From Thermothelomyces thermophilus ATCC 42464 (lineage: Eukaryota > Ascomycota > Sordariomycetes > Sordariales > Chaetomiaceae): a stretch of DNA of 64,000 nucleotides. Where the stretch lies: contig NC_016473.1 in the NCBI RefSeq assembly GCF_000226095.1, positions 2,852,001 to 2,916,000 of the forward strand, in the 5' to 3' direction. The number at the start of each line of letters is the position of its first letter. The stretch's first letter is position 1. The notes below the pieces were generated by a model. That model was not told where the DNA came from, searched no databases, and worked only from the letters and a program-made list of their open reading frames with translations. Both the position numbers and the translations under genes were made by a program. Shown here piece by piece: positions 1-58,912 of this stretch.

Positions 1-353
1 CTAAACGTCATGCCGAACTTGAGCTAGATGAATCCTAATGCTATCTAGAAGAAGCCTAGCACGAGTTGTCTAAAAAGCTTATACGGCTCTAGCGTCTTCG
101 TTAGTAGAAGGAGTTTTTAGTAGAGAAAGGTACCGATATAGTGGCGCGTGGTCTATCGACCTTAGACAAGTTAGAGGCGGTTAAACGGCAAGAGCGGCAA
201 GAGGCGCCTACTATGCCCTCGTTAGAGATTAGTGATGCCGCCGATGCTATCGACTAGGGCGTCGTCTTTAGTTCTGTCCTAGGTTTCCCTTTAGTCGATC
301 CAGATTCTGCTGGTGGAACTGTTCTAGTTTCTTAGGGCAATTTAGGTTCTTGA
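1..353 (+). pseudogene. aORF lineage I, C-terminal part, antisense to pol of E1
   Basis: One frame from position 3 runs to TGA at 351-353, broken only by TAG/TAA codons. It is antisense to E1 and overlaps the last part of pol. It reads a charged, probably helical stretch with GTDIVARGLSTLDKLEAVK around 129-185, then an acidic segment, then a tail ending near VS*GNLGS. The same core recurs in lineage II (GAEVFRRGVACLEEEEEL) and lineage III (GSELFRRGIQSLEEIEAEE), so the three are homologous although their DNA is diverged. I recall similar small predicted proteins of filamentous ascomycetes with an N-terminal cysteine cluster, but this is from memory. The N-terminus lies outside the window. Confidence 0.65.
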
Positions 354-9700: not shown

Positions 9701-9803
9701 AAATAGCTCGATTTCGGACTAGAAGATAACTTATAAGAACCTATTAAGAACTTAAATTACCTTAAGAAACTAGAGTAGTTCTACTAGTAAAATCCTAACT
9801 AGC
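6712..9803 (+). pseudogene. pol of E2 (RT, RNase H, integrase, chromodomain)
   Basis: RT active site reads YYLNDILIFS at about 7467-7500 (one Asp changed to Asn). RNase H VEIDASDYAIGGQL is at about 7905-7950. The integrase core keeps QTDGQTERLNQ at about 9058-9092. The integrase C-terminus (9266-9544) is the longest stretch in this copy without a stop, 92 codons with LERGDKVYLIVRNL and KKVGPFVIKERI. The chromodomain follows at about 9640-9790. Many TAG/TAA codons elsewhere rule out function. The sense frame stays free of TGA beyond the chromodomain, so the true C-terminus is unclear. Confidence 0.88.
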
Positions 9804-10421
9804 TATAAGAACCGGCTCTAAAGCCTATTCCCTAATAGAAAAAGAAGGGAACCCGCTAGAATTAGGACTAGGATCTAACCTAATCGACTCCTAATCAAGT
9901 ACGTCAAAAGTACCTAATGCTTAAGCCTGACCCGTAAGGGTCTACGTCTCCGACATCGGCAGAGGGGTATCTAGTTCTTCCTCCTCCTCTAGACAAGCTA
10001 CGCCACGACGAAAAACTTCGGCACCACGATCGCGCAGGGATTGCTATAAACGACGCAATCGACTTAAACGGCTTAGCGTCTAAGCAAGTAGCGCCTTGGT
10101 CTTAGCAATCTCTTTCGAAACCTTCTCTTGCTCCGACAAATTCGAAAGGACTAAGACAGTTAGTAACCTAAGGCTATAAAGGAAAACAACGAGGAACCTA
10201 CAGGTATCTGTAATGTTCGGACTACTACACTTCTTGCCTATACGAATATAATTTTAACACTTGTTTAAACCCTCTATCATTATATAACGCTTCTATAGCT
10301 TCGCATTCTAACAACGCTCGTAAGGTATAGTAACTTTGTAACCCTCTTGCTTAATCTTGATTATAATGGCGTATTGTTTACGTTTAAGATTACGACGATT
10401 CCTAGGAATATAATTAGCTAT
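9744..10421 (-). pseudogene. aORF lineage II of E2, opposite strand to pol
   Basis: 678 bp, start codon now ATA, ending at TAA; the copies in E6 and E8 are also exactly 678 bp, so the frame has no net indel in three copies (225 codons). N-terminal part: basic, then P-Y-E-R-C and, further on, NKC*NYIRIGKKC. Comparing copies, several Tyr/His are RIP products of Cys/Arg codons, giving C-x2-C, C-x2-C and a Cys after x6, close to the fungal Zn2Cys6 layout; the third Cys is uncertain. Middle: LSRLSRLRRL, then GAEVFRRGVACLEEEEEL, likely coiled coil. C-terminus: Ser/Pro-rich. The 3' end overlaps the chromodomain end of pol on the other strand. A DNA-binding role is inference. Confidence 0.68.
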
Positions 10422-10532: not shown

Positions 10533-10537
10533 CATCG

Positions 10538-10990
10538 TGTCACAAGCTAACTATATACCGTGACCTGGTGGGGTACAGCAGGCTAAATGAGCCACTAATC
10601 AAGAAAGGGCACGAAGCGAGGCTGACATAGGATCGCTAGGGAGCGCGGGCTACTACGGGCGAACAATTGCCAAAAGGGAAAGATAGCAGAGGATAGCTAG
10701 CTACTAAGGGCGATCTAAGGACAGGATAGAAAGGGACTATAAGCGATCGATAGAAGTATATATATATATAGATAGTCACTCGTTATAGTGGACTCTAGGA
10801 GTTTACTAGTGGTAACAATTACAATTATAGTACTTATACTAAGCATTGCTAATTACTATAAGAGGTAACTCTAAGTGTTGTTGTAAACCCTTTGGCTTCA
10901 CCGAATCCCTTAGACGACTTGCCTGCTTGTCCCGCTTTACCTACCTCCGTCTGGACCCTTTCAGAAGAAGTCTAAGTTGGGTTCGTCATA
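10538..10990 (+). repeat. 3' LTR of E2, type II
   Basis: 453 bp, from TGTCACAAGC to GTCATA (GTCACA in the least mutated copies, so the ends were TGT...ACA). U3 is about 10538-10767 and ends in a long TA run (10758-10771) that would serve as TATA box; R-U5 is common to all types. The five bases after it (ttagg) would be the target duplication, but the other copy is outside the window. Confidence 0.87.
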
Positions 10991-13900
10991 TTAGGCAATC
11001 TACTATAGTAAGAATACTATCGTAGGTCATTCCTATAGCTGTGTCCTTGGATTCTAATAGCTTTATAATAAAGTCTATCATAACTAAACTCTATAGTTTA
11101 TCAGCTATTAGTAGTAGCTAAAGTAGCCTATACGGCTTATATCGTGCCGTTTTACTCCGATTGCAGATATTATAGTTCTATACGACTTCCTTAACTCGTG
11201 CCATTAACTATAGAAAGTCGTAGTGTTTCTTGACTTATATAATAGTCTTCGTAACTCCTTTATATCCTCCGAGCTTCGACTCGTAAAGTTCTCGAATCAT
11301 CCGTAGCTATTGATCTTTATCATAGATATATACTTTACCTTGGTACTAGAGTTTCCTATCTCTTTCTTCTACTCCGTTAGGTACTACTAGTCTAGGTGCT
11401 ACTTGATACTATGCCTTGTTAATCCTTTCTTCTCGAAAGATTGCGTAGCATTCTAGGAACGAGTCAAGTAGATTATCTTCCACGGGTATCTACGTTTCGT
11501 AATATAGCGTTCCGTCTGTCCATTCCTTGAACAATAGTAGTATCGTTCCTATTTGTCCTTCCGTATAATCCGTTCGTCAACTTAAGATGTCCGCTTATAC
11601 GTTCTCTTTACCCTTCTTATAGCAGATCTCAAAGTTAAATTCCGCGAGGAATTCTGCCCATCGTATTTGTCGTCTATTAAGCTCCTTTGTCATTGTAAAG
11701 TATCGCAAATTCTTATAATCTGTATATACTTATACTAGTTTAATCGTACTACTAAGGTATAGTCGCTATTCCTTAAAAGCTTTGATAATTGTAAGTAGTT
11801 CCTTGTTATAGATTAGATAATTAAGACGTAGTCTGTCGAGCTTCTTTAAAAAGAAGGCTATAGGATATAGCTTTCCTTGTCTGTCTCGTTATCCTAATTA
11901 TCCTCTAATAGCATAGTTTAAAGCGTCTGTTTCTACCTCGAATGGCTTCTTAAGGTCTAGTAGTACTAGTACTAGATCTTCGGTAATAGCGTCACGGATT
12001 TACGTAAATGCTTGCTTGTATTATTCTTCCCATTAGAATTTAGCATTCTTCTTAGTAAGTTTATACAAAGGTCATACGATCGCTCTAAAGTTCCTGATGA
12101 ATATCTAGTAGAAGTTTGTAAATCTAATGAAGCTTTGTACTTCCGTGACTAACGTCAGTCGTAGCCAATTCTTGATAGCTTTAACCTTTGAAGGTTCTAT
12201 CTAGATTTGTCCTAGGGATATTTCGTATCTTAGAAATACTGTTTTCCTAACGTGGAATTCGCTTTTTTCCTTATTAACTAATAGTTTATATATATATAGC
12301 ATGTCTAACATTGCTTTTATATACTTCTAGTGTTTGTCTATCGTCTTAGAGAAGATAAGTATATTATCAAGATAATATACTATAAATTTGTCGAGAAAGG
12401 GTCGGATAGCTTGATCAATCAGGGCTTAGAACGTTGCTAGCGCGTTCATAAGTCTGAAGAGCATGACAAGGTACTTATAGTAGCCATAGGGTATCCTAAA
12501 GGCCGTTTTCTACTTGTCGCCTTCTTTGATCTATATATAGTTATAGGCCGATAGTAAGTCAAGACGTGTAAAATATTAGGCTCCTGCTAACTGATCTCGG
12601 AGCCGTGAGATTAGCGGTAACGGGTATCGGTTTTTTATAGTCTGTTCGTTAAGTTGCCGATAGTCGACATATAACCATAGCTTTCTATCTTTCTTAGGCA
12701 TGAATAGGATTAGGTAGCCTACTAGCAATATCAACAGGCAGATATATCCTCTTCAAAGGTTCTCCTCTAAATATCGCTTAAGTTCTTCGTTCTATATTTA
12801 GCTTATATAGTAGATCTTAAAGAACTTTAGTTATACTCCTTCCTTAAGCTTGATCTCGTGATCCTATAGGCCGTATTCTAATAGTCCTTCTAGATATTTT
12901 GGTTCGAATGCTAGGTATCCTTTGTATTCCTTCAGTACTTCCCTAGTCTTATCTCGTCTCTCGGTTTTCTAATAGTATACGAACTTGGTTCTATCTATAG
13001 CAATACTAGCGATTTCTCCTGTCTCAACCTACTACTCTAATTATAGTGCTCCGCATTTGTCAACAGAAAGAATAGCTATCGGCGATTTAGCTCGTTCCTC
13101 CTATCACGATATCGATGTCGTTATATCGCCTCTTCTAGAGTCTATAATGGTCTACCTGCCACTATCTGTCTCTTACGGTAGATCTGTAGGACATGCCTTT
13201 CCCTAAGCATCGTCTGCTTATGATCCTTATATACTCCCTATCTCGTTAGTCGAATATAACTCCATTTAGGGTCATAGGTAGCTACTATTCTTCTAGCTAA
13301 TATCTAGGTCGTAATCTTCATACTATAGTAACCCTAATATTATGTCTTTGTTGTTGCCTATATCTATAATGCTAAATATAACTACTATAGTCTTTCCTAC
13401 TATAGTAATGTTGATTAGTTTAGTCTCCTTATATACCTATTGTATCGGAAATAGCCCTTTGACTATACTATACTTCTGCTTCATTCTCTAAGGTATCCGT
13501 AGCTAATTTATAAGTGTTAGCGAAATCAGATTTATCTCTACTCTATTATCTACTAGTACAAGCATTTTGTGCTATTTCTACTATGCTGTTATCTATAATC
13601 GCTTGTCTTACTGCCGTCGTCTAAAGATTATAGCGATTTCCTATATTTCTGCTAGGAGGTCTCGATATAGTAGTCTCTTACACTAGTCCCTCCTATACTA
13701 CGCTACTACCTGCTGCTACATAGGCGTTAATAGCTTCTAAGCCCCTTAAAGGGCCCTGACCTGTTTCCTAGGTTAGTGCTAACCTCTTTAGTTATTTAGC
13801 TAATAGCGGCTTCGTTAATTATACTCATTTCTGTAAGCTATTAAGTGCTTATAGCTTCCTACCATTAGGTCCGTTCTGCTTTCTGTTGTACGTACTATAG

Positions 13901-16468: not shown

Positions 16469-16995
16469 AGTAGTTAAAGCAGAACAAATATATATACTAT
16501 ATAAGAAGCTTAAAAAGGAACTCGAGTTTATTAGGACTAGAATGAAAAATTGCTATGACAAACATAAGCTTAAGGGACCTTGCCTAGAGAGGGGAGACAA
16601 AGTCTACTTGATTATACGAAACCTATAAACCAAACGACTAAGTATAAAGCTAGACTTTAAAAAGGTTAGACCTTTCATTATTAAAGAACGAATTTCGATA
16701 TCTAACTACTAACTATCGTTACTATTATCTATATGACTATAGATAGATGTTTTTTATATTTCGCTTCTCGAACTAGCACCGAAAAACGCTAAGGTTGCTA
16801 CGTATATCGAAGTAGAAGACGAGGAAGAAGAATAGAACGTCGAAGAAATTCTAGATTTATATATTATTAACGGGGAACTATAGTATCTAGTTAAATGGCT
16901 TGATTTTGGACTAGAAGATAACTTATAGGAACTAGTTAAGAATTTAAACTGCCCTAAGAAACTGGAACAGTTTTACCGGTAGAACCCGGATCGAC
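16469..16995 (+). pseudogene. pol C-terminus of E4 (integrase tail and chromodomain)
   Basis: Reads LKKELEFIRTRMKN, CLERGDKVYLI and a GPF-like K-x-RPFIIKERI segment, then a chromodomain (about 16840-16960) with YLVKWLDFGLEDN, where both Trp-region residues survive. Broken by TAG/TAA codons. Confidence 0.82.
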
Positions 16996-17310
16996 TGTAG
17001 GCACTAGCTTAGACAAAACGGCTAAGTCGGCCTCTAATAAATCTAGGCCTAAAGAAGACTAGTTAAATAGGACGTTAGTACCTTAGGACCGTTACAAATA
17101 AGTAGATGCTATGTTAGAACTATCGTAAGAACGACCCTAACGTATATACTCGCTATAGTAAGAAGAGCCTGACACTATATAATAAGCCAAGTTCCGCTTA
17201 AAACACTACAAATATAATATGACGTCTACGTTAGAAGAATTAATAAAAGAAGCAAGCGTGGCGTGCTATTGGGATTTCGAAGATCGGCGCTTAGAGATAC
17301 AATCTGCTAT
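16936..17310 (-). pseudogene. aORF lineage III of E4, internally deleted
   Basis: Same family as the aORF of E9, but 375 bp instead of 661: about 286 bp are missing, mainly around the base facing 17084, which removes the helical core and leaves the cysteine-rich N-terminus joined to the C-terminal tail. Start codon reads ATA. N-terminal residues include L*CFKRNLAYY and YYSEYIR*GRSYD, in which the Tyr codons are what RIP makes from Cys. Confidence 0.6.
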
Positions 17311-17863: not shown

Positions 17864-18760
17864 GTATTGCTTTAGCTCTAGAGCATCCTAGTAAGGCTTG
17901 TAGTCTAGTACCTAGGCATCCTAGACTATACCCTTATTATAGGCCTTCTAGGCCTCTTCGAGGTCCTATAGGCCTAGAAGTACCGTGGCCTACTTCCTCT
18001 ATAGGCTCTTTGGCAGCCAGAACTTGACCATTTCGATTAAGTATAGGCCTACGGCCCCTTTAAAGTCCTGTTTGCTAACCCCCTATAGCTCCTCCTTCTA
18101 GACTCCTTTAGCTAGGACTATATAAGCCTTACCGACCTTCCTAGCCTCCTCTCCGAAGGCTATAGCTATCTATCGCTTGTTAACCAAATACTAATCCTTA
18201 GTAGCCTTATCCTTAAAGACTACTATTATATCTCTGCTTAGGAGCTTCCTAGCTATAACGGCTCCCTAGCAGCTAAAAGCCTTATTAACTACTTAGACTA
18301 TCTTAGCTAGGGTTCGGGCTTTAAGGTCCTCCTGTAGGCTTACGTTCCGTATCGTGACCTCCTATAAGGCCTATAATAGTACCGCCTTAGCCGATAGTAG
18401 GCCTCCCTAGGGGTCTGTTGCCCCCTGTTACGAGCCTACGGCTACCTATGCCTAGGTAGGGCAGGGGGTAGCCTTAAGGGCTTCTTTAAGCCCCTTTTTA
18501 ACCTCCTTGGCTACAAGTTCCTATAGGTTCGGAACCGGGCCTATAATAGTGGTTATAAGGCCCTATAAGAGCCCATCGGCAAGGTTCTATGCCTTGCCCT
18601 ATTTAGGGCTTAGTATAAGGTTAACTAGTTATATGACGAGACCCCTTAGCTCCTTGATATCTAGGGTAGGGTAGGCCTATAGTAGGCCTCCCTTTAATTG
18701 GTTCGAAACTATAGGCCTCCCTACTTAGTGGCTTGGCGTTAGGCCTTAAATTGACGTTAT
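17864..18760 (-). pseudogene. LINE copy 1: ORF1 5' part (Tad1-like)
   Basis: Minus-strand frame broken only by TAG/TAA, collinear with 57575-58390 of LINE copy 2 and extending about 85 bp further 5'. It covers the N-terminal part of the LINE ORF1 (a gag-like RNA-binding protein), rich in Lys/Glu/Ala, with stretches such as NLADGLL, VVFKDKATKDQYLVNKR and FKGAVGLYLIEMVKFW. It is cut at 17864 by E4. The start is near 18760 (ATA now), chosen because composition changes there; this is tentative. The zinc knuckle and ORF2 lie left of the window. Confidence 0.75.
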
Positions 18761-23100: not shown

Positions 23101-25970
23101 ATAACTAGAGTAATAGGTTAAGACAAGAGAAATCGCTAGCATCGCTATAGATAGAACCAAGTTCGTATACTATTAGAAAACCGAGAGACGAGACAAGACT
23201 AGGGAAATACTAAAGGAATACAAAGGATACCTAGCATTCGAACCAAAATATCTAGAAGGATTGCTAGAATATAGCCTATAGGATTATAAGATTAAGCTTA
23301 AGGAAGGAGTATAACTAAAGTTCTTTAAGATTTACTATACGAGCTAGATATAGAATAAAGAACTTAAGCAATATTTAAAGGAGAACCTTCGAAGAGGATA
23401 TATCTACCTATTGATATTGCTAGTAGGCTACCTAATCCTGTTTATATTTAAGAAAGACAGAAAGCTACGGTTATATGTCGACTATTAGTAACTTAACGAA
23501 TAGACTGTGAAAAATTAATACCCGTTATTACTAATCTTATAGCTCTAAGATTAGTTAGTAGAAGCCTAATATTTCATATATCTTGACTTATTATTAGCCT
23601 ATAACTATATATAGATTAAAGAAGGTAACAAGTGGAAAACGGCCTTTAGGATACCCTATAGCCATTATAAGTACCTCGTTATACTATTTAGACCTATAAA
23701 TACGCTAGTAACATTCTAAGCCCTAATTAATCAAGCTATCCGACCCTTTCTCGACAAATTTATAGTATATTATCCTAATAATATACTTATCTTCTCTAAG
23801 ACGATAGATAAACACTAGAAGCATGTAAAAACAGTGCTAGACACGCTATACGTATATAAATTATTAGTTAACAAGGAAAAGAGCAAATTCCACGTTAGGA
23901 AAACGGTGTTTCTAGGATACGAAATATCCCTAGGACAAATCTAGATAGAACCTTTAAAGGTCAAAGCTATCAAGGAGTGGCTATAACTAACGTTAGTAAT
24001 GGAAATACGAAGCTTTATTAGATTTGCAAACTTCTACTAAATATTCATTAGGAACTTTAGAGCAATTGTACGACCTTTGTACAAACTTACTAGAAAGAAC
24101 ACTAAATTCTAATAGGAAGAATAGTACGAGTAAGCATTTACGCAGATCTATAACGCTATTACCAAAGATCTAGTACTAGTATTACTAGATCCTAAGAAGC
24201 CATTCGAGGTAGAAACGGACGCTTTAGACTATGCCATCGGAGGACAATTAGAATAATAAGATAAACAAGGAAAGCTACATCTTATAGCCTTCTTTTCAAA
24301 GAAGCTCGATAGACCACGTCTTAATTATCTGATCTATAATAAGGAACTACTTATAATTATCGAAGCTTTTAAAGAATAGTAACTATACCTTAATAGTACG
24401 ATTAAACTAGTATAAGTATATATAGATTATGAGAATTTGCGATATTTTATAATGATAAAGGAGCTTAATAGACAATAAATACGATAGGTAAAATTCCTCG
24501 CGGAATTTAACTTTGAGATCTGCTATAAAAAAGGCAAAGAGAACGTATAAGCGGACATCTTAAGCCGACGAACGGATCATATAGAAGGATAAACGGAAAT
24601 AATACCACTATTGTTTAAGGAACAAATAGACGGAACGCTACATTACAAAACGTAGACACCTATAGAAGATGATCTATTTAACTCGTTCTTAGAATGCTAT
24701 ATAATCTTTCGAGAAGAAAGGATTAACAAGGTATAGTATTAAGTAGCACCCGGACTACTAGTACCTAACGGAGTAGAAGAAAAAGATAGGAAACTCTGGT
24801 ACCGAGGTAGAGCATATATCTACGACTAGGATCAACAGCTACAGATGATTCGAGAACACTATAAGTCGAAACTTAGAGGATATAAAGGAGTTATAAAGAC
24901 TATCGTACAAGTCAAGAAATACTATAACTTTTTATAGTTAACGGTATAAGTTAAGGAAGTTATATAGAATTACGATATTTATAATCGAAGCAAAACGGCA
25001 CGATATAAGCTGTATAGGTTACTTTAGCCACTGCTAATAGCTAATAAACTATAGAGCTCGGTTATAATGGACTTTATTATAAAGCTACCAGAATCTAAAG
25101 ATATAGTTATAGGAGTAATCTATAATAGCATTCTCACTATAGTAGATTGCCTAACTAAATAGGTATACTTCTTTCCCTATAAGGAATCCTAGATAGCTAA
25201 ACAGCTAGTAGACGTAATTTATCGGCAAGTTATATTAGTGTATACTTAGCTATAAGAATAGATTACCAATAGAGATACTAAGTTCGCGTCGAAATTCTAG
25301 CAAGCATTAATATAACAATTAAGCGTTAATAGCAAGCTATTAACGATATATTACCTATAGACTAACAGATAAATAGAATAACTAAACCAAGTTATCGAGT
25401 AGTATCTCCGTTCTTACGTTAACTACTAGTAAGATAACTAGGTCATACTATTACTAATAATATAACTCGCTTATAATATAACGCTAATAGAAATAACTAA
25501 AGTTATACCGTTCTTCGCGAACTACAGATATAAAGCAGACCTTAGGCAAGGACTAGAGGTTATAATGCCAAGAGCAGTAGTTAAAGCGAAATAAATATAC
25601 ATATTATATAAGAAGCTTAAAAAGGAACTCGAGTTTGTCAAGACCAGAATAAAGAACTACTACGATAAATATAGGCTCGAGGGACCTTGCCTAGAGAGGG
25701 GAGATAAAGTCTACCTAATTGTATAAAACCTATAAACTAAATGACTAAGCACAAAGCTAGACTTTAAAAAGGTCAGACCTTTTATTATTAAAGAACGAAT
25801 TTCGACATTTAACTACTGACTATCGTTACTGTTATCTATATAACTACAAATAAATGTTTTTTATATTTCACTTCTTAAACTAGTACTAAAAAATGCTAAG
25901 GTTACTATATATATCGAAGCAAAAGATGAGGAAGAGGAATAAGACATTAAAGAAATTCTAGATTTATATA
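20160..25970 (+). pseudogene. gag-pol of E5, cut at the chromodomain
   Basis: Start codon ATG is now ATA (20160-20162). Landmarks: zinc knuckle at 21094-21141 (Y-x2-Y, then GHYKQEC); protease MLVLVDNKAEMNLIS at about 22578-22625; RT active site YYPNNILIFS at about 23766-23800, with both Asp lost; RNase H VETDALDYAIGGQL at about 24205-24255; integrase HHCC about 24850-25000; core MDFIIKLPES near 25066; integrase C-terminus about 25560-25850; chromodomain starts at about 25935 and stops at 25970. The frame runs from gag to integrase without a visible shift. Confidence 0.88.
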
Positions 25971-26393
25971 TATTACGGAAATATATATATAGATGCCGCC
26001 CAAGCCACTAGTACAAATGGGCCAATCAAGTTAAAGGAACGAAAGGACCAATTATAACATAGGAAGCATAGTAATCACTACACTTACCAGTAATCAGGGT
26101 AATCACCACTATACGATCACTTATAATCACCGTAATCAGGAATAATCACTAGGATTATATATACATATAGATAGTCACTCGTTAGGTAGACTCTAAGAGT
26201 TTACTAGTGATAGTAACCTATCCTATAATCACAGTACTTATACCAAGCATTGCTAATTACTATAAAAGACAACTCTAGTGTTGTTATAAACCCTTTAACT
26301 TTACCGAATCCCTTAGACGACCTGCCTACTTGTCCCGCTTAATCTACCTTCGTCTAAACCCTTTTAGAAGAAGTCTAAGTTAGGTTCATTATA
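25971..26393 (+). repeat. 5' LTR of E6, type III (subtype a)
   Basis: 423 bp, TATTACGGAAATATATAT to TTATA. The middle of U3 (26071-26149) holds seven close variants of taatca(c/g). The same U3 version and the same length occur in the E7 LTR. TATA run near 26156-26168. Confidence 0.85.
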
Positions 26394-29400: not shown

Positions 29401-32350
29401 TAGCATCGCTATGGATAGAACTAAGTTCGTATACTATTAGAAAGCCGAGAGACAAGACAAGACTAGAGAAGTACTAAAGGAATATAAAGGACACCTAGCA
29501 TTCGAACCGACGTATCTAGAAGGACTACTAGAACACGGCCTATAGGATTACGAGATCAAGCTTAAGGAAGGAGTATAACTAAAGTTCTTTAAGATTTACT
29601 ATACAAGCTAGACATAGAACGAAGAACTTAAGCGATACTTAGAGGAGAATCTTCGAAGAGGATATATCTACCTATCGACATCGCTAGCAGGCTACCTGAT
29701 CCTATTTATACCTAAGAAAGATAGAAAGCTATAGTTATATATTAACTATTAATAACTTAACGAATAGACTATAAAAAACTAATACCTATTACTACTAATC
29801 TTACGGCTCTAAGATTAGTTAGTAGGAGCCTAATATTTTACACGTCTTGACTTGCTATTAGCCTATAACTATATATAGGTCAAAGAAGGCGACGAGTAGA
29901 AAACGGCCTTTAGGATACCCTATAGCTATTATAAGTACCTCGTTATGCCATTTAGACTTACGAACACGCCGGCAACGTTCTAAGCCCTAATTAATCAAGC
30001 TATCTAATCCTTTCTTAACAAATTTATAATATATTATCTCGACAATATACTTATCTTCTCTAAAACGATAGACAAACACTAGAAGCATATAAGAGTAGTA
30101 CTAAATATATCATACGTATATAAGCTATTAGTTAATAAGGAAAAGAGCAAATTCTATGTTAGGAAGACGGTGTTTTTAGGATACAAGATATCCCTAGGAC
30201 AAATCCGGATAGAACCTTTAAAGGTCGAAGCTATCAAGGATTAGCCACGACCGACGTCAGTTACGGAAGTACAAAGTTTTATCGGGTTTACGAACTTCTA
30301 CCAGATATTTATTAGAAACTTTAGAGCGATCGTACGATCTTTATACGAACTTACTAAGAAGAATACTAAATTCTAATAGGAAGAGCAACACAAGCAAGCA
30401 TTTACGTAGATCTGTAACGCCATTACTAAAGATCTAGTACTAGTATTACTAGACCCTAAGAAGCCATTTAAGGTAGAAACGGACGCTTTAGACTATACTA
30501 TTAGAGGATAGTTAGGATAACGAGACAAATAAGGGAAGCTATATCCTATAGCCTTTTTTTTAAAGAAGCTTAATAGACTATGTCTTAATTATCCGATCTA
30601 TAATAAGGAACTACTTACGATTATCGAAGCTTTTAAGGAATGGCAACTATACCTTAGCGGTACAATCGAACTAGTACAAGTATATATAGATTATAAGAAT
30701 TTATAATACTTTATGACGATAAAGAAGCTTAATAGACAACAAATATAATAGGTAGAATTCCTTATAGAATTCAATTTTAAGATCTGCTATAAGAAGGGTA
30801 AAGAGAATGTATAAGCAGATGCCTTAAGCCGATAAACAGATTATATAGAAGGACAAACGGAAACAACGCCACCATTATTTAAGGAATAAATAGACAGAAC
30901 GCTATATTACGAAACGTAGACACCTATAGAAGATGATCTACTTAACTCGTTCTTAGAATGTTACGTAATCTTTCGAGAAGAAAGGATTAACGAGATATAA
31001 TATTAAGCAGCACCTAGACTAATAGTACCTAATGGAGTAGAAGAAAAAGATAGGAAACTCTAGTACCGAGGCAAAGCGTATATCTACAATAAAGATCAAT
31101 AGCTACAAATGATTTAAGGACTTTACGAGTCGAAACTCGGAGGATATAAAGGAGTTACAAAGACTATTATATAAGTTAAGAAATACTACGACTTTCTATA
31201 GTTAACGATATAAGTTAAGGAAGTTATATAGAACTATAACATCTATAATTGAAGCAAAACGGTATAATATAAGCCGTATAGGCTACTTTAGCTATTACTA
31301 ATAGCCGACAAACTATAGAGTTTAGTTACAATAGACTTTATTACGAAACTACTAGAATCTAAGGACATAGCTATAGGGGTAATCTACGATAGTATTCTCA
31401 CTATAGTAGACCGCCTAACTAAATAGGTATACTTCTTTCCCTATAAGGAGTCCTAGATAGCGGAACAGTTAGCAGACGTGATCTATTAGTAAGTCATATT
31501 AATATACGCTTAGCTATAGAAATAGATTACCAATAGAGATACCAAGTTCGTATTAAAGTTCTAGTAAGCGTTAATATAACGATTGGGCGTTAATAGTAAG
31601 CTATTAACAGCATACTACCTATAGACTAACGGATAAACGGAACGACTAAACTAAGTTATTAAGCAGTACCTCTGTTCTTACGTTAACTACTAGTAAAATA
31701 ACTAGGTCATACTATTACTAATAGTATAACTTGCTTATAATATAACGCTAACGGAAATGACTAAAGTCATACTGTTTTTCGCAAACTACAGATATAAAGC
31801 AGACCTTAGGTAAGGACCAGAGGTTATAGTGCCGAGAGCAGCAGTCAAAGTAGAACAAATGTACATATTATATAAGAAGCTTAAAAAAGAACTCGAGTTT
31901 ATCAGAACTAGAATAAAGAATTACTATAATAAATATAGGCTCGAGGGATCTTACCTAGAGAGGGGAGACAAAGTCTACCTAATCGTACGAAACCTACAAA
32001 CCAAATGACTAAGTATAAAGCTAGACTTTAAGAAGGTCGGACCCTTTGTTATCAAAGAACAAATCTCGACATCTAACTACCGACTATCGTTACCATTATC
32101 TATATAACTATGGATAGATGTTTTTTATATTTTACTTCTTAAACTAGCGCTAAAGAATGCTAAAGTTGCTATATATATCGAAGCAGAGGACGAAGAAAAA
32201 GAATAGGACATCAAAGAAATCTTAGATTTATATATTATTAATAGAGAACTATAGTACCTAGTTAAATAGCTTAATTTTAGACTAGAAGATAACTTATAGG
32301 AACTAATTAAGAACCTAAGTTACCTTAAGAAACTAGAGCAGTTCTACTAG
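26421..32350 (+). pseudogene. gag-pol of E6
   Basis: Start ATG is now ATA. Zinc knuckle 27361-27409; protease near 28841-28880 (ILVDSRVEIN-like, Asp and Ser visible); RT YYLDNILIFS at about 30031-30060; RNase H near 30455-30510; integrase core from about 31325 and C-terminus 31830-32110; chromodomain about 32200-32350. Stops are TAG/TAA. Any recombination point between the two parent elements lies in this frame and is not visible by eye because the parents are so alike. Confidence 0.86.
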
Positions 32351-32984
32351 TAAAATCCTAACTAGCTATAAGAACCGGCTCTAAAGCCTATTCCCTAATA
32401 GAAAAAAAGGGGAACCTACTAGAATTAGGACTAAGATCTAACCCGATCGACTCCTAATCAAGCACGTCAAAAGTACCTAACGCCTAAGCCTAACCTGCGA
32501 GGGTCTATATCTCCGATATTAGCGGAGGAGTATCTGGTTCTTCCTCCTCCTCTAGACGAGCTATACCACGACGAAAAACCTTAGTACTACAATCGCGTAG
32601 GGATTACTATAAACAACGTAATCGACTTAAACGGCTTAGTGTCTAAGTAAGAAGCGCCTTGGTCTTAGCAATCTCTCTTAAAACCTTCTCTTACTCTGAT
32701 AAATTCGAAAGGACTAAGACAATTAGTAACCTAGGACTATAAAGGAAAATAACAAGGAACCTATAGGTATCTATAACATTTAGGCTACTATACTTCTTGC
32801 CTATGTAAATATAGTTCTAACACTTGTTTAAACCCTCTATTATTATATAATGCTTTTACGGCTTTGTATTCTAATAATGCTTGTAAGGTATAGTGACCTT
32901 ATAACCCTCTCGTTTAATTTTGATTGTAATAGCATGTTATTCGCGCTTAAGATCGTAACGGTTCCTAGGAATACGATTAGCCAT
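32307..32984 (-). pseudogene. aORF lineage II of E6
   Basis: 678 bp, from an intact ATG (32984) to TAA, the same length as in E2 and E8. Cysteine-rich N-terminus: NKC*NYIYIGKKY follows a P-Y-K-H-Y segment in which Tyr and His stand where other copies keep Cys and Arg. A helical charged middle and the VTLGS-like end match E2. Antisense to pol, with the 3' ends overlapping; it starts 121 bp inside the 3' LTR edge, so the U3 of that LTR lies directly upstream of it. Confidence 0.67.
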
Positions 32985-37278: not shown

Positions 37279-37735
37279 TATAACGAACCTAACTTAGACT
37301 TCCTCTAAAAGGGTTCAGACAGAGGTAAATTAAGCAAGACAAGTGTACAGGTCGTCTAAGGGATTTGGTAAAGCCAAAGGGTTTATAATAATACTAGAGT
37401 TATCTCCTATAGTAGTTAGCGATGCTTAGTATAAGTACTATAATTATAGGTTAGGTTACTATCACTAGTAAACTCCTAGAGTCTACTATAACAAGTGATT
37501 ATCTACATATATATATGCTTCTGTCGGTCGGTTATAGTCCTCTTCTAGCCTGCCCTAGGATTGCCTTTAGTAGCTAGCTATCCTCTGCTATCTTTCCCTT
37601 TTAGCAATTGTTCGCCTATAGTAGCCTGCGCTCCCTAGCGATTCTATGTTAACCTCGCTCCGTGCCCTTCTTGATTAGTGGCTCGTTTAGCCTGCTACGC
37701 CCTACTAGGTTACGGTATATGGTTAGCTCGTGATA
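37279..37735 (-). repeat. 3' LTR of E8, type II
   Basis: 457 bp. The U3 end at 37735 faces the aORF start 118 bp away, so this U3 is the nearest upstream DNA of the plus-strand aORF as well as the promoter region of the element. TATA run near 37508-37520. Confidence 0.9.
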
Positions 37736-37740
37736 CGATG

Positions 37741-37852: not shown

Positions 37853-38530
37853 ATGGCTAATCGTGTTCCTAGGAACCGTTATAATCTTAAGCACGAACGA
37901 TACGCTATTACGATTAAGATTAAATAAGAGGGTTATAAAGTCACTATACCTTGTAAGTGTTATTAGAATACAAAGCCACGAAAGTATTATATAATGATAA
38001 AGGGTTTAAACAAGTATTAGAACCATATTCGTATAGATAAGAAGTATAATAGCCCGAACGTCATAAATACTTATAGGTTCCTTATTATTTTCCTTCGTAG
38101 TCCTAGGTTACTAACTATCTTAGTCCTTTTAAATTTATCAGAGCAGGAGAAGGTTTCGAAAGAGATTACTAAGACCGAGGTACTTCTTGTTTAGACACTA
38201 AGCCGTTTAAGTCGATTACGTCATTTATAGCAATCCCTACGCGATTATAGTACTAAAGTTTTTTGTCGTGGTGTAGCTTGTTTAAAGGAGGAGGAAGAAC
38301 TAGATACTCCTCTGCTAATATTAGAGACATAGACCCTCGTAGGTTAGGCTTAGGCGTTAGGTGCTTTTGGCGTGCTTGATTAGGAGTCGATTAGGTTAGA
38401 TCCTAGTCCTAATTCTAGCGGGTTCCCCTTTTTCTCTATTAGGGAATAAGCTTTAGAGCCGGTTCTTATAGCTAGTTAAGATTTTACTAGTAGAACTACT
38501 TTAATTTCTTAGGGTAACTTAGGTTCTTAA
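37853..38530 (+). pseudogene. aORF lineage II of E8 (complete, with stops)
   Basis: ATG at 37853 to TAA at 38530: 225 codons in one frame, interrupted about a dozen times by TAG/TAA that replace CAG/CAA. Domains: basic N-terminus (ANRVPRNRYNLKHERY), residues about 25-70 with PCKCY*, a Tyr/Cys-containing IKGLNKY*NHIRIDKKY stretch (Tyr where E2 has Cys), residues about 95-150 helical (LSEQEKVSKEITKTE, LSRLSRLRHL, VFCRGVACLKEEEEL), and a Ser/Pro-rich end. Convergent with pol and overlapping its chromodomain end. Predicted nuclear DNA-binding or regulatory role is inference; a host-gene capture or a silencing suppressor are equally open. Confidence 0.7.
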
Positions 38531-41500
38531 CTAGTTCCTATAAGTTATCCTCTAGTCTAAAATTAAGCTATTTAACTAAGTACTATAGTTTTCTATTAAT
38601 AATATATAAATCTAGAATTTCTTTAATGTTCTATTCTTTCTCTTTGTCTTTTGCTTCGATGTTTATAGCGATTTTAGCATTCTTCGGCGCTAGTTCAAGA
38701 AGTAAAATATAAAAAACGTCCGTCTATAGTCATATAGATAACGGTAATAATAGTCGATAGTTAGATGTCGAGATTCGTTCTTTGATAATAAAGGGTCTAA
38801 CCTTCTTAAAGTCTAGCTTTATATTTAGTCGTTTGGTTCGTAGGTTTCGTATGATCAAATAGACTTTATCTCCCCTCTCTAGGCAAGGTCCCTTAAGCCT
38901 ATATTTATCGTAGTAGTTCTTTATTCTGGTTCTAACAAACTCAAGTTCCTTTTTAAGCTTCTTATATAATATATACATTTGTTTTACTTTGACTACTGCT
39001 CTTGGCACTATAACCTCTAGTCCTTGCCTAAGGTCTGCTTTATATCTGTAGTTCGCGAAGAACGGTATAACTTTGGTCGTTTCCGTTAGCGTTATATTAT
39101 AGGCGAGTTATACTATTAGTAATAGCATGACCTAGTTGTCTTGCTAGTAGTTAATGTAAGAACGGAGGTACTATTTGATAACTTGGTTTAGTCGCTCCGT
39201 TTGTCTATTAGTCTATAGGTAGTATGCTGTTAATAGCTTGCTATTAACGCCTAATCGTTATATTAACGCTTGCTAGAACTTCGATACGAACTTAGTATCT
39301 CTATCGGTAATCTATTTCTATAGCTAAGTGTATACTAATGTAACTTACCAATAGATTATATTTGCTAACTGTTCCGCTATCTAGGACTCCTTATAGGGAA
39401 AGAAGTATACCTATTTAGTTAGGTAGTCTACTATAGTAAGAATACTATTATAGATTACCCTTGTAGCTATGTCCTTAGATTCCAGCAGTTTCGTAATAAA
39501 GTCTATTGTAACTAAACTCCATAGTTTGTTAGCTGCTAGTAGTAGCTAAAGTAGCCTATATAGCTTATATCGTACTATTTTACTTCGATTATAGATGTCG
39601 CAGTTCTATACGACTTCCTTAACTTATACCATTAACTATAGAAAGTTATAGTATTTCTTAACTTGTACAACAGTCTTCGTAACTCCTTTATATCCTCCGA
39701 GTTTCGACTCGTAGAGTTCTTAAATCATTCGTAGCTATTGATCTTTATCATAGATATATGCTTTACCTCGGTATTAGAGTTTCCTATCTTTTTCTTCTAC
39801 TTCATTAGGTACTACTAGTCCGGGTGTTACTTGATATTATACCTTGTTAATCCTTTCTTCTCGAAAGATTACGTAACATTCTAGGAACGAGTCAAGTAGA
39901 TCATCTTCTATAGGTGTCTACGTTTCGTAATATAGCGTTCCGTTTATTTGTTCCTTAAATAATAGTGGCGTTATTTTCGTTCGTCCTTCTGTATAATCTG
40001 TTTATTGGCTTAAGGCATCCGCTTATATGTTCTCTTTGCCCTTCTTGTAGCGGATCTCAAAATTGAATTCCGTAAGGAATTCTACCTATTGTATTTGTTA
40101 TCTATTAAGCTCCTTTGTCGTTATAAAGTATCGCAAATTCTTATAATCTATATATACCTATACTAGTTCGATTATACCGCTAAGGTATAGTTGCTATTCC
40201 TTAAAAGTTTCGACAATTGTAAGTAGTTCCTTATTATAGATCAGATAATTAAGACGTAGTTTATTAAGCTTCCTTAAAAAGAAGGCTATAGGATATAGCT
40301 TCCCTTGTTTATCTTATTATCTTAATTGTCCTCTGATAGCGTAGTCTAAAGCGTCTATTTCTACCTCAAATAGCTTCTTAGGGTCTAGTAATACTAGTAT
40401 TAGATCTTTAGTAATGGTATTACGAATCTATATAAATGTTTACTTATACTATTCTTCCTATTAGAATTCGGCGTTCTTCTTAGTAAGTTCGTATAAAGGT
40501 CGTATAATCGTTCTAAAGTTCCTAATAAACATCTAATAGAAGTTTGTAAACCTAATAAAACTTTGTACTTCCGTAACTAACGTCGGTTATAACTAATTCT
40601 TAATAGCTTTAACCTTTAAAGGTTCTATCCGAATTTGTCCTAGGGATATCTCGTATCCTAAAAACACCGTCTTCCTAATATAGAATTCGCTCTTTTCCTT
40701 GTTAACTAATAGCTTATACACGTGTAACACGTCTAGTATTACTCTTATATGCTTCCGGTGTTTGTCTATTATCTTAGAGAAGATAAGTATATTATTAAGA
40801 TAATATACTATAAATTTGTCGAGAAAGGGTTAGATAGCTTGATCGATCAGGGCTTAAAACGTTGCTAGCGCGTTTATAAGTCTAAATAGCATGATAAGGT
40901 ACTTGTAGTGGCTATAGGGTGTCCTAAAGGCCGTTTTCTACTCGTTATTTTCTTTAATCCATATATAGTTATAGGCCGATAGTAAGTCAAGACACATAAA
41001 ATATTAGGCTCCTACTAACTAATCTCGGAGCTATAAGATTAGTAGTAATAGGTATTAGTTTTTTACGGTCTGTTCGTTAAGTTGCCGATAGTCGACATAT
41101 AACCGTAGCTTTCTATCTTTCTTAGGTATAAATAGAATTAGGTAGCCTACTAGCGATATCGACAGGCAGATATATCCTCTTCGAAGGTTCTCCTCTAAAT
41201 ATCGCTTAAGTTTTTTATTCTATATCTAACTCGTATAGTAAATCTTAAAGAACTTTAGTTATACTCCTTCCTTAAGCTTGATCTCGTGATCCTATAGGCC
41301 GTGTTCTAGTAATCCTTCTAGATACTTCGGTTTAAATGCTAGGTATCCTTTGTATTCCTTCGGTACTTCCCTAGTCTTATCTCGTCTCTCGGCTTTCTAA
41401 TAGTATACGAACTTAGTTCCGTCTATAGCAATACTAGCGATTTCTCCTATCTTAATCTACTACTCTAGTTACAATGCTCTGTATTCGTTAACGAAGAGAA

Positions 41501-45772: not shown

Positions 45773-46195
45773 TGTGACAAACCTAACTTAGACTTCTTCT
45801 AAAGGGGTTTAGACGAAGGTAGATTAAGTGGGACAAGTAGGCAGGTCGTCTAAGGGATTTGGTGAAGCTAAAGGGTTTATAATAATACTAGAGTTATCTT
45901 TTATAGTAATTAGCAATACTTGGTATAAGTACTGTAATTATAGGATAGGTTGCTATTACTAGTAAACTTTTAGAGTCTACCTAACGAGTGACTATCTATA
46001 TATATATATAATCCTAGTGATTATTCCTAATCACGGTGATCGTAAGTGATCGCATGGTAGTAATTACCCTAATTACTAGTAAGCGTAATAATTACTATGC
46101 TTCCTATGTTATAATTAATCCTTTTGTTCCTTTGACTTGATTAGCCCATTTGTGCTAGTGGCTTAGGCGGCATCTATATGTATATTTCCGTGACA
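45773..46195 (-). repeat. 5' LTR of E7, type III (subtype a)
   Basis: 423 bp, equal in length and U3 version to the 5' LTR of E6, including the repeated gtgatta-like motifs (46016-46100). Outer end TGTCACGGAAATATAC. Confidence 0.85.
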
Positions 46196-49100: not shown

Positions 49101-49700
49101 CCGTTCTTCGCGAACTACGGATATAAAGCAGACCTTAGGTAAGCACTAAAGGTTATAATGCTAAGAGCAGCAGTCAAAGTAGAACAAATGTACATACTAT
49201 ATAAAAAGCTTAAAAAGGAACTCGAGTTTATCAAGATTAGAATAAAGAACTACTACAATAAATATAGGCTCGAGGGACCTTACCTAGAGAAGGGAGACAA
49301 AGTCTATCTAATCGTATAAAACTTATAAACTAAACGACTAAGCACGAAGCTAGACTTTAAAAAGGTTAGACCCTTTATTATCAAAGAACGAATTTCGATA
49401 TCTAACTACCAACTATCATTACTATTATCTATACGACTATAGATAGATGTTTTTTATATTTCACTTCTCGAACTAGTACTAAAGAACGCTAAGGTTATTA
49501 TATATATCGAAGTAGAGAATAAAGAGGAAAAATAGGACGTTAAAGAAATTCTAGATTTACGTATTATTAATAGGGAACTATAGTATCTAGTCAAATGGCT
49601 TAATTTTAGATTAGAAGATAACTTATAGAAACTAGTTAAGAATTTAAACTGCCTTAAGAAACTAGAATAATTCCATCGGCAGAACCTAGATCGACTATAG
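46196..49700 (+). pseudogene. pol of E9 (protease end to chromodomain)
   Basis: RT motif CYLDNILIFS at about 47358-47390; RNase H VETDALDYTIRGQL near 47803-47845; integrase HHCC about 48440-48570, core about 48650-49000, C-terminus 49150-49430; chromodomain about 49540-49700 with YLVKWLNF. TAG/TAA stops throughout. Confidence 0.86.
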
Positions 49701-50296
49701 GCACTAGCTCGGACAAAATAGCCAAGTCGGCCTCCGACAAATCTAGGCCTAAAGAAGACTAGTCAAACGGGACGTTAGCACCCTAGGACCGTACGTTACT
49801 AATAACGCGTGCCTCGGAATCCTGTACCCTCTGTTCTTCTGCTTCTATTTCCTCTAGAGACTGTATACCTCGACGAAATAGCTCGGAACCCTGCTCCTTT
49901 AAGAAACGTTTCTGGCGACAAAGACGAGCTAATCAGCCGATAGCTATCTAAAGTTGAGTCTAAAGAACAAAAAGGGCCTCTTTAGTATCGGCCTCTTCTT
50001 ATTTTACACGTTTTTGTTTAGATATAATCTTTATTACTATAAAAGGTTAGCTACAAACATTAAGGTAACAAACTAGGTCACGAACAAGTAGACGCTACGT
50101 CGGAACTATCGTAAGAACGACCCCGACATACGTACTCGCTATAGCAAGAAGAGCCTAACGCTATACGATAAGCCAAGTTCTGCTTAAAACACTACAAACA
50201 TAGTATGACGTCTACACTAGAAGAATCAATAAAAGAAGCAAGTATAGTATACTATTAGGATTTCGAAGATCGGCGCTTAGAGATACGATCTGCCAT
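49636..50296 (-). pseudogene. aORF lineage III of E9
   Basis: ATG at 50296 (MADRISKRR) to TAA at 49636; 661 bp, so there is one net frameshift between the N- and C-terminal halves. N-terminal half: C-L-*-C-FKQNLA-Y, then SSC-Y-S-E-Y, then VCRGRS-Y. If each of these Tyr codons (TAT/TAC) is a RIP product of TGT/TGC, the layout is C-x2-C-x6-C-x8-C-x2-C-x6-C, the Zn2Cys6 pattern of fungal transcription factors. C-terminal half: LARLCRQKRFLKEQ and GSELFRRGIQSLEEIEAEE, probably coiled coil, then an acidic Leu-rich tail ending S*GSLNS. Antisense to pol and overlapping its 3' end. The role is inferred from motif only. Confidence 0.68.
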
Positions 50297-50851: not shown

Positions 50852-51208
50852 ACTAAGGCGTTACTTGCTTAGACGCTAAGCCGTTTAAGTCGATTATATC
50901 ATTTATAGCAATCCCTACGTAATCGTAGTGCCGAAGTTTTTCATTATAGCATAGCTCGTCTAGAGGAGGAGGAAGAGCTAGATACTCTAACGCCAATGTC
51001 AGAGATACAGACCCTTGTAAGTTAGGCTTAGGCATTAGGTGCTTTTGACGTGCTTAATTAGGAGTCGATTAGGTTAGATCCTAGTCCTAATTCTAATAAG
51101 TTCCCCTCTTTTTCCATTAGGGAATAGGCTTTAGAGCTAGTTCTTATAGCTAGTTAGGATTCTACCAGTAGAACTACTTCAGTTTCTCAGGGCAATTTAG
51201 GTTCTTAA
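50852..51208 (+). pseudogene. aORF lineage II of E10, C-terminal half
   Basis: Same frame and stop position as in E8; begins in the helical part after the cysteine region because E9 cuts it. Contains LSRLSRL, the charged EEEEELD segment and the Ser/Pro-rich tail with NSNKFPSF and SQGNLGS, where the final Gln is a real CAG in this copy. Confidence 0.63.
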
Positions 51209-57574: not shown

Positions 57575-58912
57575 CCTACCCTAGATATTAAGGAGCTAAG
57601 GGGTCTTGTTACGTAACTAGTCGACCTTATACCAAGCCCTAAACAGGGCAAGGCATAGGACCTCGCCGATAGGCTCTTATAGGGCCTTACGACCATTATT
57701 ATAGGCCTGGTTCCAAACCTATAGGAACTTATAGCCGAGGAGGTCAAAAAGAGGCTTAAAGAAGCCCTTAAGGCTACCCCCCGCCCTACCTAGGCATAGG
57801 TGGCCGCAGGCTCGTAACAGGGGGCAACAGACCCCTAGGGAGGCCTACCGTCGGCTAAGGCGGTACCGTTACGAGCCTCGTAGGAGGTCACGATACGGAA
57901 TATAAGCCTATAGGAGGACCTTAAAGCCCGAACCCCGGCCGAGATAGTCTAAGTAGTTAACAGGGCTTCTAGCCACTAGGGAGCCGTTATAGCTAGGAAG
58001 CTCCTAAGTAGGGATATAGTAGTAGTCTTCAAGGATAAGGCTACTAAGGATTAGTATTCGGTTAATAAGCGATAGGTGGCTATAGCCTTTGGAAAGGAGG
58101 CTAGGGAGGTTGGTAGGGCCTATATAGTCCTAGCTAAAGGAGTCCAGAAGGAGGAGCTATAGGGGGTTAGCAAACAAGACTTTAAAGGGGCTATAGGCTT
58201 GCACTTAATTAAAACGGTCAAGTTCCGGCTGCCAAAGAGCCTATAGAGAAAGTAGGCTACAGTACTTCTAGGCCTATAGGACCTCGAAGAGGCCTAGAAG
58301 GCCTATAACGAAGGCGTAGTCTAGAATACCTAGGTACTAGACTACGAGCCCTACTAGGATACTCTAGAGCCAAAGTAGTACTATAGGTATTAGAGCTTTA
58401 GCTATACCTAGCAGTACTACTAGCAGCCGGCCCGTTATAGCCATTATAGCGCAAAGGCCTATGGGGAAGGGGGGAAGGCTAGAGAGGCCTAGTACCCTAC
58501 CTACTCTAACCAACTCCCTTATAGGTATACGGCCTGTAGAGGCCCCTATATAGCTTGGTATAGGGGCTGCCCGAAGAAAGTCGAGGCCCAGGAAAGAGCT
58601 AAAGAGGCCTACTAGTATAGACCCCGGACCTTCTAACCACTAGAGCAACTATACTAGAAGGTAGCCTTCGAGTTTAGCAGCCAGCCAGAGGACGACGACT
58701 ACTACTATACAGGGGCTAAACACCCCTATAAGAGGCCTACCCTAGCCTAATAGGCGGCTAGGAGTGCCTTGTTCAATGCCCGACAGACCTATATCTCCTT
58801 TCTATAGCCTAGAGCCCCCTCCCTCTTATAACCGGCCGAAGGGGCGATAGCTATAAAGCCTACTACTACCATGCCCCTATCCTCTGCTCTAGCTACCTTA
58901 AATACAAATTAA
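57575..58912 (+). pseudogene. LINE copy 2 ORF1 (RNA-binding, zinc knuckle)
   Basis: One frame with TAG/TAA stops only, ending at TAA 58910-58912. Collinear with LINE copy 1 over its first 820 bp or so. The N-terminal part is Lys/Glu/Ala-rich. The C-terminal part has one CCHC-like knuckle at about 58534-58570 (CRGPYIAWYRGCPKK, with Tyr where His is expected), a Gln/Tyr-rich stretch before it and an acidic DDDYYY stretch after it. ORF1 proteins of this class bind the element RNA. The start codon is outside the copy. Confidence 0.8.

What the first reader, a model, noticed from the sequence alone, without database searches (positions are those of the whole stretch)
37853..38530. Antisense accessory ORF in Ty3/gypsy elements, predicting a Zn2Cys6-like protein
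Between the chromodomain and the 3' LTR, seven of the copies carry an extra ORF on the strand opposite to gag-pol (1-353; 9744-10421; 16936-17310; 32307-32984; 37853-38530; 49636-50296; 50852-51208). Three copies have exactly 678 bp with the same start and stop. The protein has a cysteine-rich N-terminus that approaches C-x2-C-x6-C-x8-C-x2-C-x6-C once RIP-made Tyr codons are allowed for, then a helical charged core (GSELFRRGIQSLEEIEAEE and relatives). The three lineages share that core at protein level although their DNA differs, which speaks for past selection on the protein. Antisense ORFs are known in some plant LTR elements; a Zn-cluster protein in this position in fungal gypsy elements is not one I know as described. 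It could regulate its own or host promoters, or counter silencing; this is inference.
Basis: partly seen in the sequence, partly recalled or inferred. Interest (0 to 1): 0.88.

Follow-up and report, generated by a model that had tools for sequence, protein, structure and literature searches.

The report
Spliced antisense gene in fungal retrotransposon
A fungal jumping element carries, on the strand opposite to its main genes, a real intron-containing gene for a possible DNA-binding protein, and this gene plus the neighbouring control region occurs in three very different versions on an otherwise uniform element.

Summary
The seven stretches exist and hold remains of an antisense gene, but none is an open ORF: 37853-38530 (+) has 12 internal stops. 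The frame is nevertheless real: 18 unmutated copies elsewhere in this genome carry it intact. They show that the gene is split. Exon 1 (69 codons) carries C-x2-C-x6-C-x8-C-x2-C-x6-C; an antisense-strand intron follows, whose length varies between copies; exon 2 is predicted as one long helix. Three versions share the phase-1 intron site and differ by 7 and 14 residues in the helix. The "lineages" are not separate families: the pol end differs at 0-1 of about 1,530 R/Y sites, the antisense gene at about 27-36%, and the U3 part gives no BLAST match, so antisense gene plus U3 behaves as an exchangeable cassette. Zn2Cys6 membership is not secured (Pfam 13.6 bits, cut-off 21). An antisense gene in this place is already known in a fungal Ty3 element (brtn of Boty). 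Best guess, untested: a spliced antisense regulator of its own U3, working like HBZ of HTLV-1.

The parts
37853..38072 (+). Version I antisense gene, exon 1 (mutated copy), antisense to gag-pol
   Evidence: Frame and intron position
38073..38123 (+). Intron of the antisense gene, 51 nt; ATAGGT...ACTAAC...TTAG in this copy, GTAGGT in the copy at 9744
38124..38530 (+). Version I antisense gene, exon 2 (helical core); its last part lies in the DNA shared with the pol end
37279..37736 (-). 3' LTR of the same element (gag-pol on the - strand)
   Evidence: Boundaries of matches to the other LTRs
38730..39008 (-). Longest remaining pol ORF of this copy (92 aa); the ORF at 9266-9544, aligned with it, matches SH3_Tf2-1
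32307..32984 (-). Version I antisense gene, mutated; intron 32714-32764
9744..10421 (-). Version I antisense gene, mutated; intron 10151-10201 with GTAGGT kept
50852..51208 (+). Version I antisense gene, exon-2 fragment only
49636..50296 (-). Version II antisense gene, mutated; intron 50037-50085 (49 nt, GTTCGT...GCTAAC...ATAG)
49791..50076 (+). 286-bp segment with GTACGT...TAG ends on the gag-pol strand, absent from the copy at 16936 and from 4 other scored copies
16936..17310 (-). Version II antisense region that lacks the 286-bp segment and so the core
1..353 (+). Version III antisense gene, exon-2 part; exon 1 lies before the window (C2:2851700-2851906)
10537..10991 (+). LTR of version I; its U3 part is specific to the cassette, its R-U5 part shared with II and III

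Best explanation
Shown: a chromodomain Ty3/gypsy element carries between pol and the 3' LTR an antisense gene of two exons; 18 unmutated copies encode the identical 69-codon exon 1 and an intact, equal-scoring exon 2 (spliced product 196 residues in the one copy read). Exon 1 has a six-Cys pattern with Zn2Cys6 spacing; exon 2 is predicted as a long helix that varies by whole heptads between versions. The gene ends tail-to-tail with pol and overlaps it by 125 nt. The antisense gene and the U3 part of the LTR differ together between three versions on one gag-pol. Inferred: an antisense transcript starts in or near the 3' LTR and is spliced; the protein forms a dimer through the coiled coil, binds DNA in the nucleus through a Zn-cluster-like head, and controls transcription from its own U3. 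Because the intron faces the antisense strand, the sense genomic RNA does not lose it during retrotransposition. One template switch near the pol end between co-packaged RNAs would give the mosaic, because U3 comes from the 3' end and U5 from the 5' end of the RNA; protein and target would then be inherited together.
For: Eighteen copies 99-100% identical over 1,201 bp, of 40 scored; 18 of 150 scored places with identical stop-free exon 1; 18 of 150 with equal-scoring stop-free exon 2. The distance between exon 1 and the exon-2 core varies from 198 to 212 nt in all three residues mod 3, so no continuous frame can be shared but splicing gives one product. Intron signals at the homologous phase-1 site in 29 of 29, 26 of 30 and 26 of 30 copies of I, II, III; the length mod 3 accounts for the frame relation in I and, at the commonest length, in II. 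Cys/Tyr columns. Heptad steps 42/49/56 (counted). Codon position 2 below position 3 in R/Y changes: 17 of 94 against 34 of 94, p 0.008, and 21 of 78 against 35 of 77, p 0.02. Mosaic. Helix 2-76. Chromo and SH3_Tf2-1 in the pol end of the unmutated copy. Analogy to HBZ: passages of PMC10186651.
Against: No RNA data: antisense transcription and splicing are read from sequence only. Pfam Zn_clus is below its cut-off; the exon-1 model has mean pLDDT 54.9. Among mutated copies at most 4 of 6 sites are still Cys in one copy, site 4 of II and site 3 of I are Tyr throughout, and version I has another spacing. The first G of the 5' splice site survives in 1 of 29 copies of I, 13 of 26 of II and 1 of 26 of III. 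A DNA target in U3 was not shown. Linkage of gene and U3 follows from a single crossover without any selection. Intron patterns and alignment blocks were chosen after looking at the sequences, the p-values are uncorrected, the pairwise comparisons overlap, and the I-II totals (18 of 78 against 27 of 77) show only a weak trend. One helix from a single sequence is weak evidence for a coiled coil.
Confidence: 0.5

Rival explanations
1. The antisense transcript, not the protein, is what matters: it makes double-stranded RNA with the gag-pol RNA and tunes silencing.
For: Proposed for antisense aORFs in general (passage of PMC7264820); tail-to-tail overlap with pol.
Against: A conserved frame, Cys/Tyr columns, heptad-step length changes and lower change at codon position 2 are not needed for an RNA function.
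Confidence: 0.15
2. The protein works on the nuclear phase of the element itself, for instance import or targeting of the pre-integration complex, rather than on transcription.
For: Position next to integrase and chromodomain; nuclear localisation is reported for the aORF product of plant Grande (passage of PMC7264820).
Against: The gene varies together with U3, not with the integrase end, which is the same in R/Y terms in all versions; this is weak, since one crossover explains it.
Confidence: 0.2
3. A captured host gene fragment carried as a passenger without function.
For: No relative above threshold in Pfam or in viral contigs; some version II copies exist without the core (5 of 40 scored).
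Against: Three strongly diverged versions keep frame, Cys/Tyr columns and intron site, and 18 copies are intact.
Confidence: 0.1
4. No gene at all: a frame left open by chance and by mutation bias.
For: Every window copy is full of stops; one antisense frame in pol also has few stops.
Against: 18 intact copies with both exons unchanged while the intron length varies.
Confidence: 0.03

Closest known systems
brtn, the antisense gene of Boty-like elements (Botrytis cinerea, Sclerotinia); Zhao et al. 2011, Virology 417:248
   Same: Fungal LTR element with a CHROMO domain in gag-pol and an additional gene between pol and 3' LTR on the opposite strand (passages of PMC7264820, PMC8365987 and PMC4227169). 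The 2011 paper is not held and was not read.
   Different: Homology to BRTN could not be tested; whether BRTN has the Cys pattern, the intron or linked U3 versions is not known to me from any call.
aORF-3R of plant Ty3 elements (Grande gene23, Retand ORF4 / TRP28, RIRE2)
   Same: Antisense gene between pol and 3' LTR; DNA binding or a nuclear role is suggested (passages of PMC7264820 and PMC11963269).
   Different: TRP28 is named as another domain; the word intron does not occur in the main text of PMC11963269.
HBZ of HTLV-1 and APH-2/3/4
   Same: Antisense gene expressed from the 3' LTR with spliced transcripts; nuclear HBZ interferes with CREB-2 binding, APH-3 and APH-4 suppress 5' LTR transcription (passages of PMC10186651). 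Works like, not member of.
   Different: HBZ is a bZIP protein of a retrovirus; here a Cys-rich head plus a helix, no bZIP match, no common ancestry claimed.
crapaud subfamilies of Podospora
   Same: Diverged U3 versions on a largely common internal region with conserved R and U5; template switching proposed (sections 8 and 12 of PMC10787394).
   Different: The figure legend there names two ORFs, and the word antisense does not occur in the main text; here an antisense gene changes together with U3.
Gal4-type Zn2Cys6 regulators (PF00172)
   Same: Spacing C-x2-C-x6-C-x8-C-x2-C-x6-C, then linker and coiled coil (architecture recalled).
   Different: Below the Pfam cut-off (13.6 against 21 bits).

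Membership tests
Zn2Cys6 binuclear cluster (PF00172) | Six Cys with Zn2Cys6 spacing (spacing rule recalled) | tested here: met
   Unmutated exon 1 has all six; II and III show the six Cys/Tyr columns; version I has x8 instead of x6 between sites 2 and 3 and site 5 is 25 Tyr, 3 His, 1 Cys
Zn2Cys6 binuclear cluster (PF00172) | Score above the curated Pfam cut-off | tested here: not met
   E 0.073, 13.6 bits, cut-off 21; pieces of mutated copies gave no family
Zn2Cys6 binuclear cluster (PF00172) | Zn-cluster fold | tested here: inconclusive
   Model mean pLDDT 54.9; no fold search made
Antisense aORF between pol and 3' LTR (aORF-3R, brtn type) | Opposite strand, between pol and 3' LTR | tested here: met
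Antisense aORF between pol and 3' LTR (aORF-3R, brtn type) | Sequence homology to BRTN | not testable with these tools
   No fungal protein collection at hand; the 2011 paper is not held
Antisense aORF between pol and 3' LTR (aORF-3R, brtn type) | Antisense transcript | not testable with these tools
   No RNA data
Chromodomain Ty3/gypsy element | Integrase C-terminal SH3 and chromodomain at the pol end | tested here: met
   SH3_Tf2-1 E 1.8e-16, Chromo E 2.9e-14 in the unmutated copy; reverse transcriptase was not tested
HBZ-like antisense regulator | bZIP domain | tested here: not met
   No bZIP family among Pfam matches up to E 10; analogy of working only
HBZ-like antisense regulator | Acts on LTR transcription | not testable with these tools
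   Needs a reporter assay

The most novel reading that the evidence does not exclude
The antisense gene and U3 form a self-contained control cassette (DNA-binding protein plus its own target promoter) that is exchanged as a unit between elements sharing one gag-pol, so that subfamilies differ in regulatory identity while all other functions stay the same; versions would not cross-regulate.
Probability: 0.3. Interest if true: 0.8.

Novelty: new variant of a known kind. Interest (0 to 1): 0.6.

Why it matters
The function of antisense genes in LTR retrotransposons is described as not known (PMC7264820). Here is one in a fungus with unmutated, near-identical copies, a defined intron, a testable DNA-binding-like head and a natural set of three protein/U3 pairs on one backbone, so specificity can be tested directly. 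It may also help to explain U3 subfamilies such as those of crapaud, and it shows that mutation-scarred repeats can hide a second, antisense gene with an intron that plain ORF searches miss.

Tried and rejected
Considered and dropped: (1) a continuous 678-bp ORF: rejected, two exons. (2) Independent lineages of an old element: rejected, gag-pol is nearly the same in all three. (3) An element copy without the antisense gene at 25750-26250: its junction matched over the whole length only in the window itself, 1 of 40 scored, so it looks like a nested insertion. (4) Pfam, PDB and viral-contig searches with exon pieces gave no relative above threshold. (5) Fold search was not run: the exon-1 model is poor and exon 2 is mainly one long helix. 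(6) CGG/CCG pairs near U3: two were printed for about 380 bp, by my own estimate not more than chance; no control was run. (7) dN/dS in the strict sense was not computed, since it would need the mutations undone; purine/pyrimidine differences by codon position were used instead. Their blocks were anchored on the splice site and the core, which favours matches somewhat; sliding the core block by 2-12 codons gave at least 0.41 against 0.26 (II) and 0.36 (I) observed. (8) One search used wrongly oriented loci and was discarded; one search replaced it.

Full report
What was checked. The window is C2:2852001-2916000 of a genome of 38,744,216 bases in 7 contigs. From memory this size and number fit Myceliophthora (Thermothelomyces) thermophila; no call tested it, nor that the host is a fungus. 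The seven stretches of the finding are homologous pieces next to the pol end, towards the 3' LTR, of repeats full of transitions; none is an open frame.

Is the frame more than chance? In 28 copies of version I (the type of 37853-38530; two are window copies) the proposed antisense frame has 13.3 stops per copy; the other five frames have 18.0, 20.8, 23.4, 25.1 and 25.6. Per 100 codons the spliced antisense frames of versions I, II, III have 5.9, 5.8 and 5.4 stops (copies with a recognised intron: 29, 26 of 30, 26 of 30); the lowest gag-pol-strand frame in pol, taken as the pol frame, has 5.9, 5.2 and 4.8. Against this: one antisense frame inside pol is as low (5.4-5.6; the rest 7.8-12.1), so stop counts alone do not prove a gene.

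Unmutated copies. A search with a stop-free exon-2 piece found, among 150 scored places of 519 candidates, 18 with equal score and a 133-aa frame without stops. A 1,201-bp stretch around it is 99-100% identical in 18 of 40 scored places of 983 candidates, and 18 of 150 scored places have an identical exon 1. One such stretch was fetched (L089) and read: LTR 105-552 (ends by inspection), exon 1 680-887, intron 888-957, exon 2 from 958 to the stop at 1338-1340, pol stop at 1216-1218 on the other strand, overlap 125 nt counting both stops (one search printed 124 because its end lay one base short), product 196 residues. Whether these copies still move was not tested; of pol only the last 194 codons of L089 were read. 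Between L089 and the mutated version III copies there are 2 R/Y differences in 1,685 sites although identity to one such copy is only 88%, and none in the exons apart from a gap of three codons (0 of 205 and 0 of 376): the differences are transitions, as repeat-induced point mutation makes them. The window copy at 1-353 is thus a mutated copy of an element whose antisense gene still exists intact in this genome.

The intron. In the 18 unmutated copies the distance from the end of exon 1 to the exon-2 core runs from 198 to 212 nt, with 9, 4 and 5 copies in the residues 0, 1 and 2 mod 3, while the exons score the same. A continuous frame cannot serve all of them; splicing can. The mutated copies agree: splice-like signals on the antisense strand occur at the same phase-1 place in 29 of 29 (I, 51 nt), 26 of 30 (II; 49 nt in 21, 50 in 4, 48 in 1) and 26 of 30 (III, 51-75 nt, poly-T) copies (patterns written after inspection, the eight misses not examined). 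The lengths account for the unbroken frame in I and, at 49 nt, for the frame change in II. The first G is kept in 1 of 29, 13 of 26 and 1 of 26; it follows a T, which the pattern required and which is the mutated context (TpG to TpA). An intron facing the antisense strand is not removed by splicing of the sense genomic RNA and can survive retrotransposition; this is inference from established knowledge.

The protein. Of the last 60 codons of exon 1, the columns with at least 90% Cys or Tyr are in II exactly six, in III the same six plus one column that is Tyr in all 26, in both with spacing C-x2-C-x6-C-x8-C-x2-C-x6-C. In I they are five of six plus one all-Tyr column, with x8 instead of x6 between sites 2 and 3; site 5 of I has 25 Tyr, 3 His, 1 Cys and misses the threshold. 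Site 4 of II and site 3 of I are Tyr in every copy, and no mutated copy keeps more than 4 Cys (29, 26 of 30 and 26 of 30 copies). The unmutated copy has all six Cys. Pfam Zn_clus reaches 13.6 bits against a cut-off of 21 and the fold model is poor: Zn2Cys6-like is a fair description, membership is not established. Exon 2 is predicted as one main helix, residues 2-76, block means of pLDDT 94-98 for residues 1-70, with two short helices after it (single sequence). The core glycine is at exon-2 codon 42, 49 and 56 in I, II and III (counted): steps of one heptad. R/Y differences, which such transitions cannot cause, are in the totals lowest at codon position 2 and highest at 3 in every comparison, though not in every block. 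Unmutated against II: 26, 17, 34 of 94 each, p 0.008 for position 2 against 3; against I: 28, 21, 35 of 78, 78, 77, p 0.02 (uncorrected; the comparisons of III repeat these, since III equals the unmutated copy in R/Y terms). I against II shows only a weak trend (23, 18, 27 of 78, 78, 77).

The cassette. On the pol side the versions differ at 0 of 1,530 (I-II), 0 of 1,529 (I-III) and 1 of 1,558 (II-III) R/Y sites. Over 6.2 kb of single window copies III and I differ by 28 transversions in 6,191; two version I copies by 17 in 6,503. In the compared blocks of the antisense gene the same measure is about 27-36%. From L089, BLAST matches to I and II exist in the part of the LTR taken as R-U5, around the polypurine tract and in pol, but none at E 1e-3 in the part taken as U3 nor in most of the antisense gene; the U3/R border is inferred, not mapped. 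So the block from the last part of pol to U3 is exchanged, with only the polypurine tract kept alike. A single template switch near the pol end would do this. Three versions were seen; others may exist, since only best-scoring places were looked at. U3 subfamilies on a largely common internal region, and template switching as a cause, are reported for crapaud of Podospora (PMC10787394: abstract, sections 8 and 12 read), where the main text does not use the word antisense.

A second intron-like segment. In version II, 286 bp with GTACGT...TAG ends on the gag-pol strand are missing in one piece in 5 of 40 scored copies (519 candidates), the one at 16936 among them. This removes the antisense core. 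Sense splicing before retrotransposition is a possible cause; a deletion between the two GT is another.

What is known. [quoted passage not shown]). The brtn paper is not held. Ten literature searches brought no listing whose title or abstract start describes a Zn-cluster-like or intron-bearing antisense gene in a fungal Ty3 element, or one linked to U3 versions; the lists were capped and the library holds open-licence papers only, so this is weak evidence of novelty. One lead not followed: in Blumeria, antisense transcripts from transposons were annotated as noncoding, and fungal zinc finger proteins are among the newly annotated coding genes (passages of PMC10648671). HBZ of HTLV-1 is the closest case of working: antisense, from the 3' LTR, spliced, nuclear (passages of PMC10186651).

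Verdict. Real, known in kind, unusual in detail: new variant of a known kind. The protein-coding, spliced nature is well supported (about 0.95 by my estimate); action on its own U3 is the likeliest use but only inferred.

Noticed in passing
49791-50076 and 16936-17310: 286-bp segment with splice-like ends on the gag-pol strand, missing in one piece in 5 of 40 scored version II copies.
   Followed up: partly
L089 and 17 further places on C1-C7: An unmutated gypsy family, 18 copies 99-100% identical over 1,201 bp, beside many heavily mutated copies of the same element.
   Followed up: partly
25971-26393 and 45777-46191: LTRs of a further type, about 76% like the version II LTR; 39 other scored places match it (whose query also held pol); one lies inside a pol copy of the window.
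   Followed up: no
17860-18670 and 57575-58385: An 811-bp inverted repeat pair, 89% alike, abutting LTRs, in DNA of higher G+C than the elements around it.
   Followed up: no
G000 C2:3051715, C3:2786467, C5:1554271: Version I places with stop-free frames of 160-170 aa around the core, longer than in the window copies.
   Followed up: no
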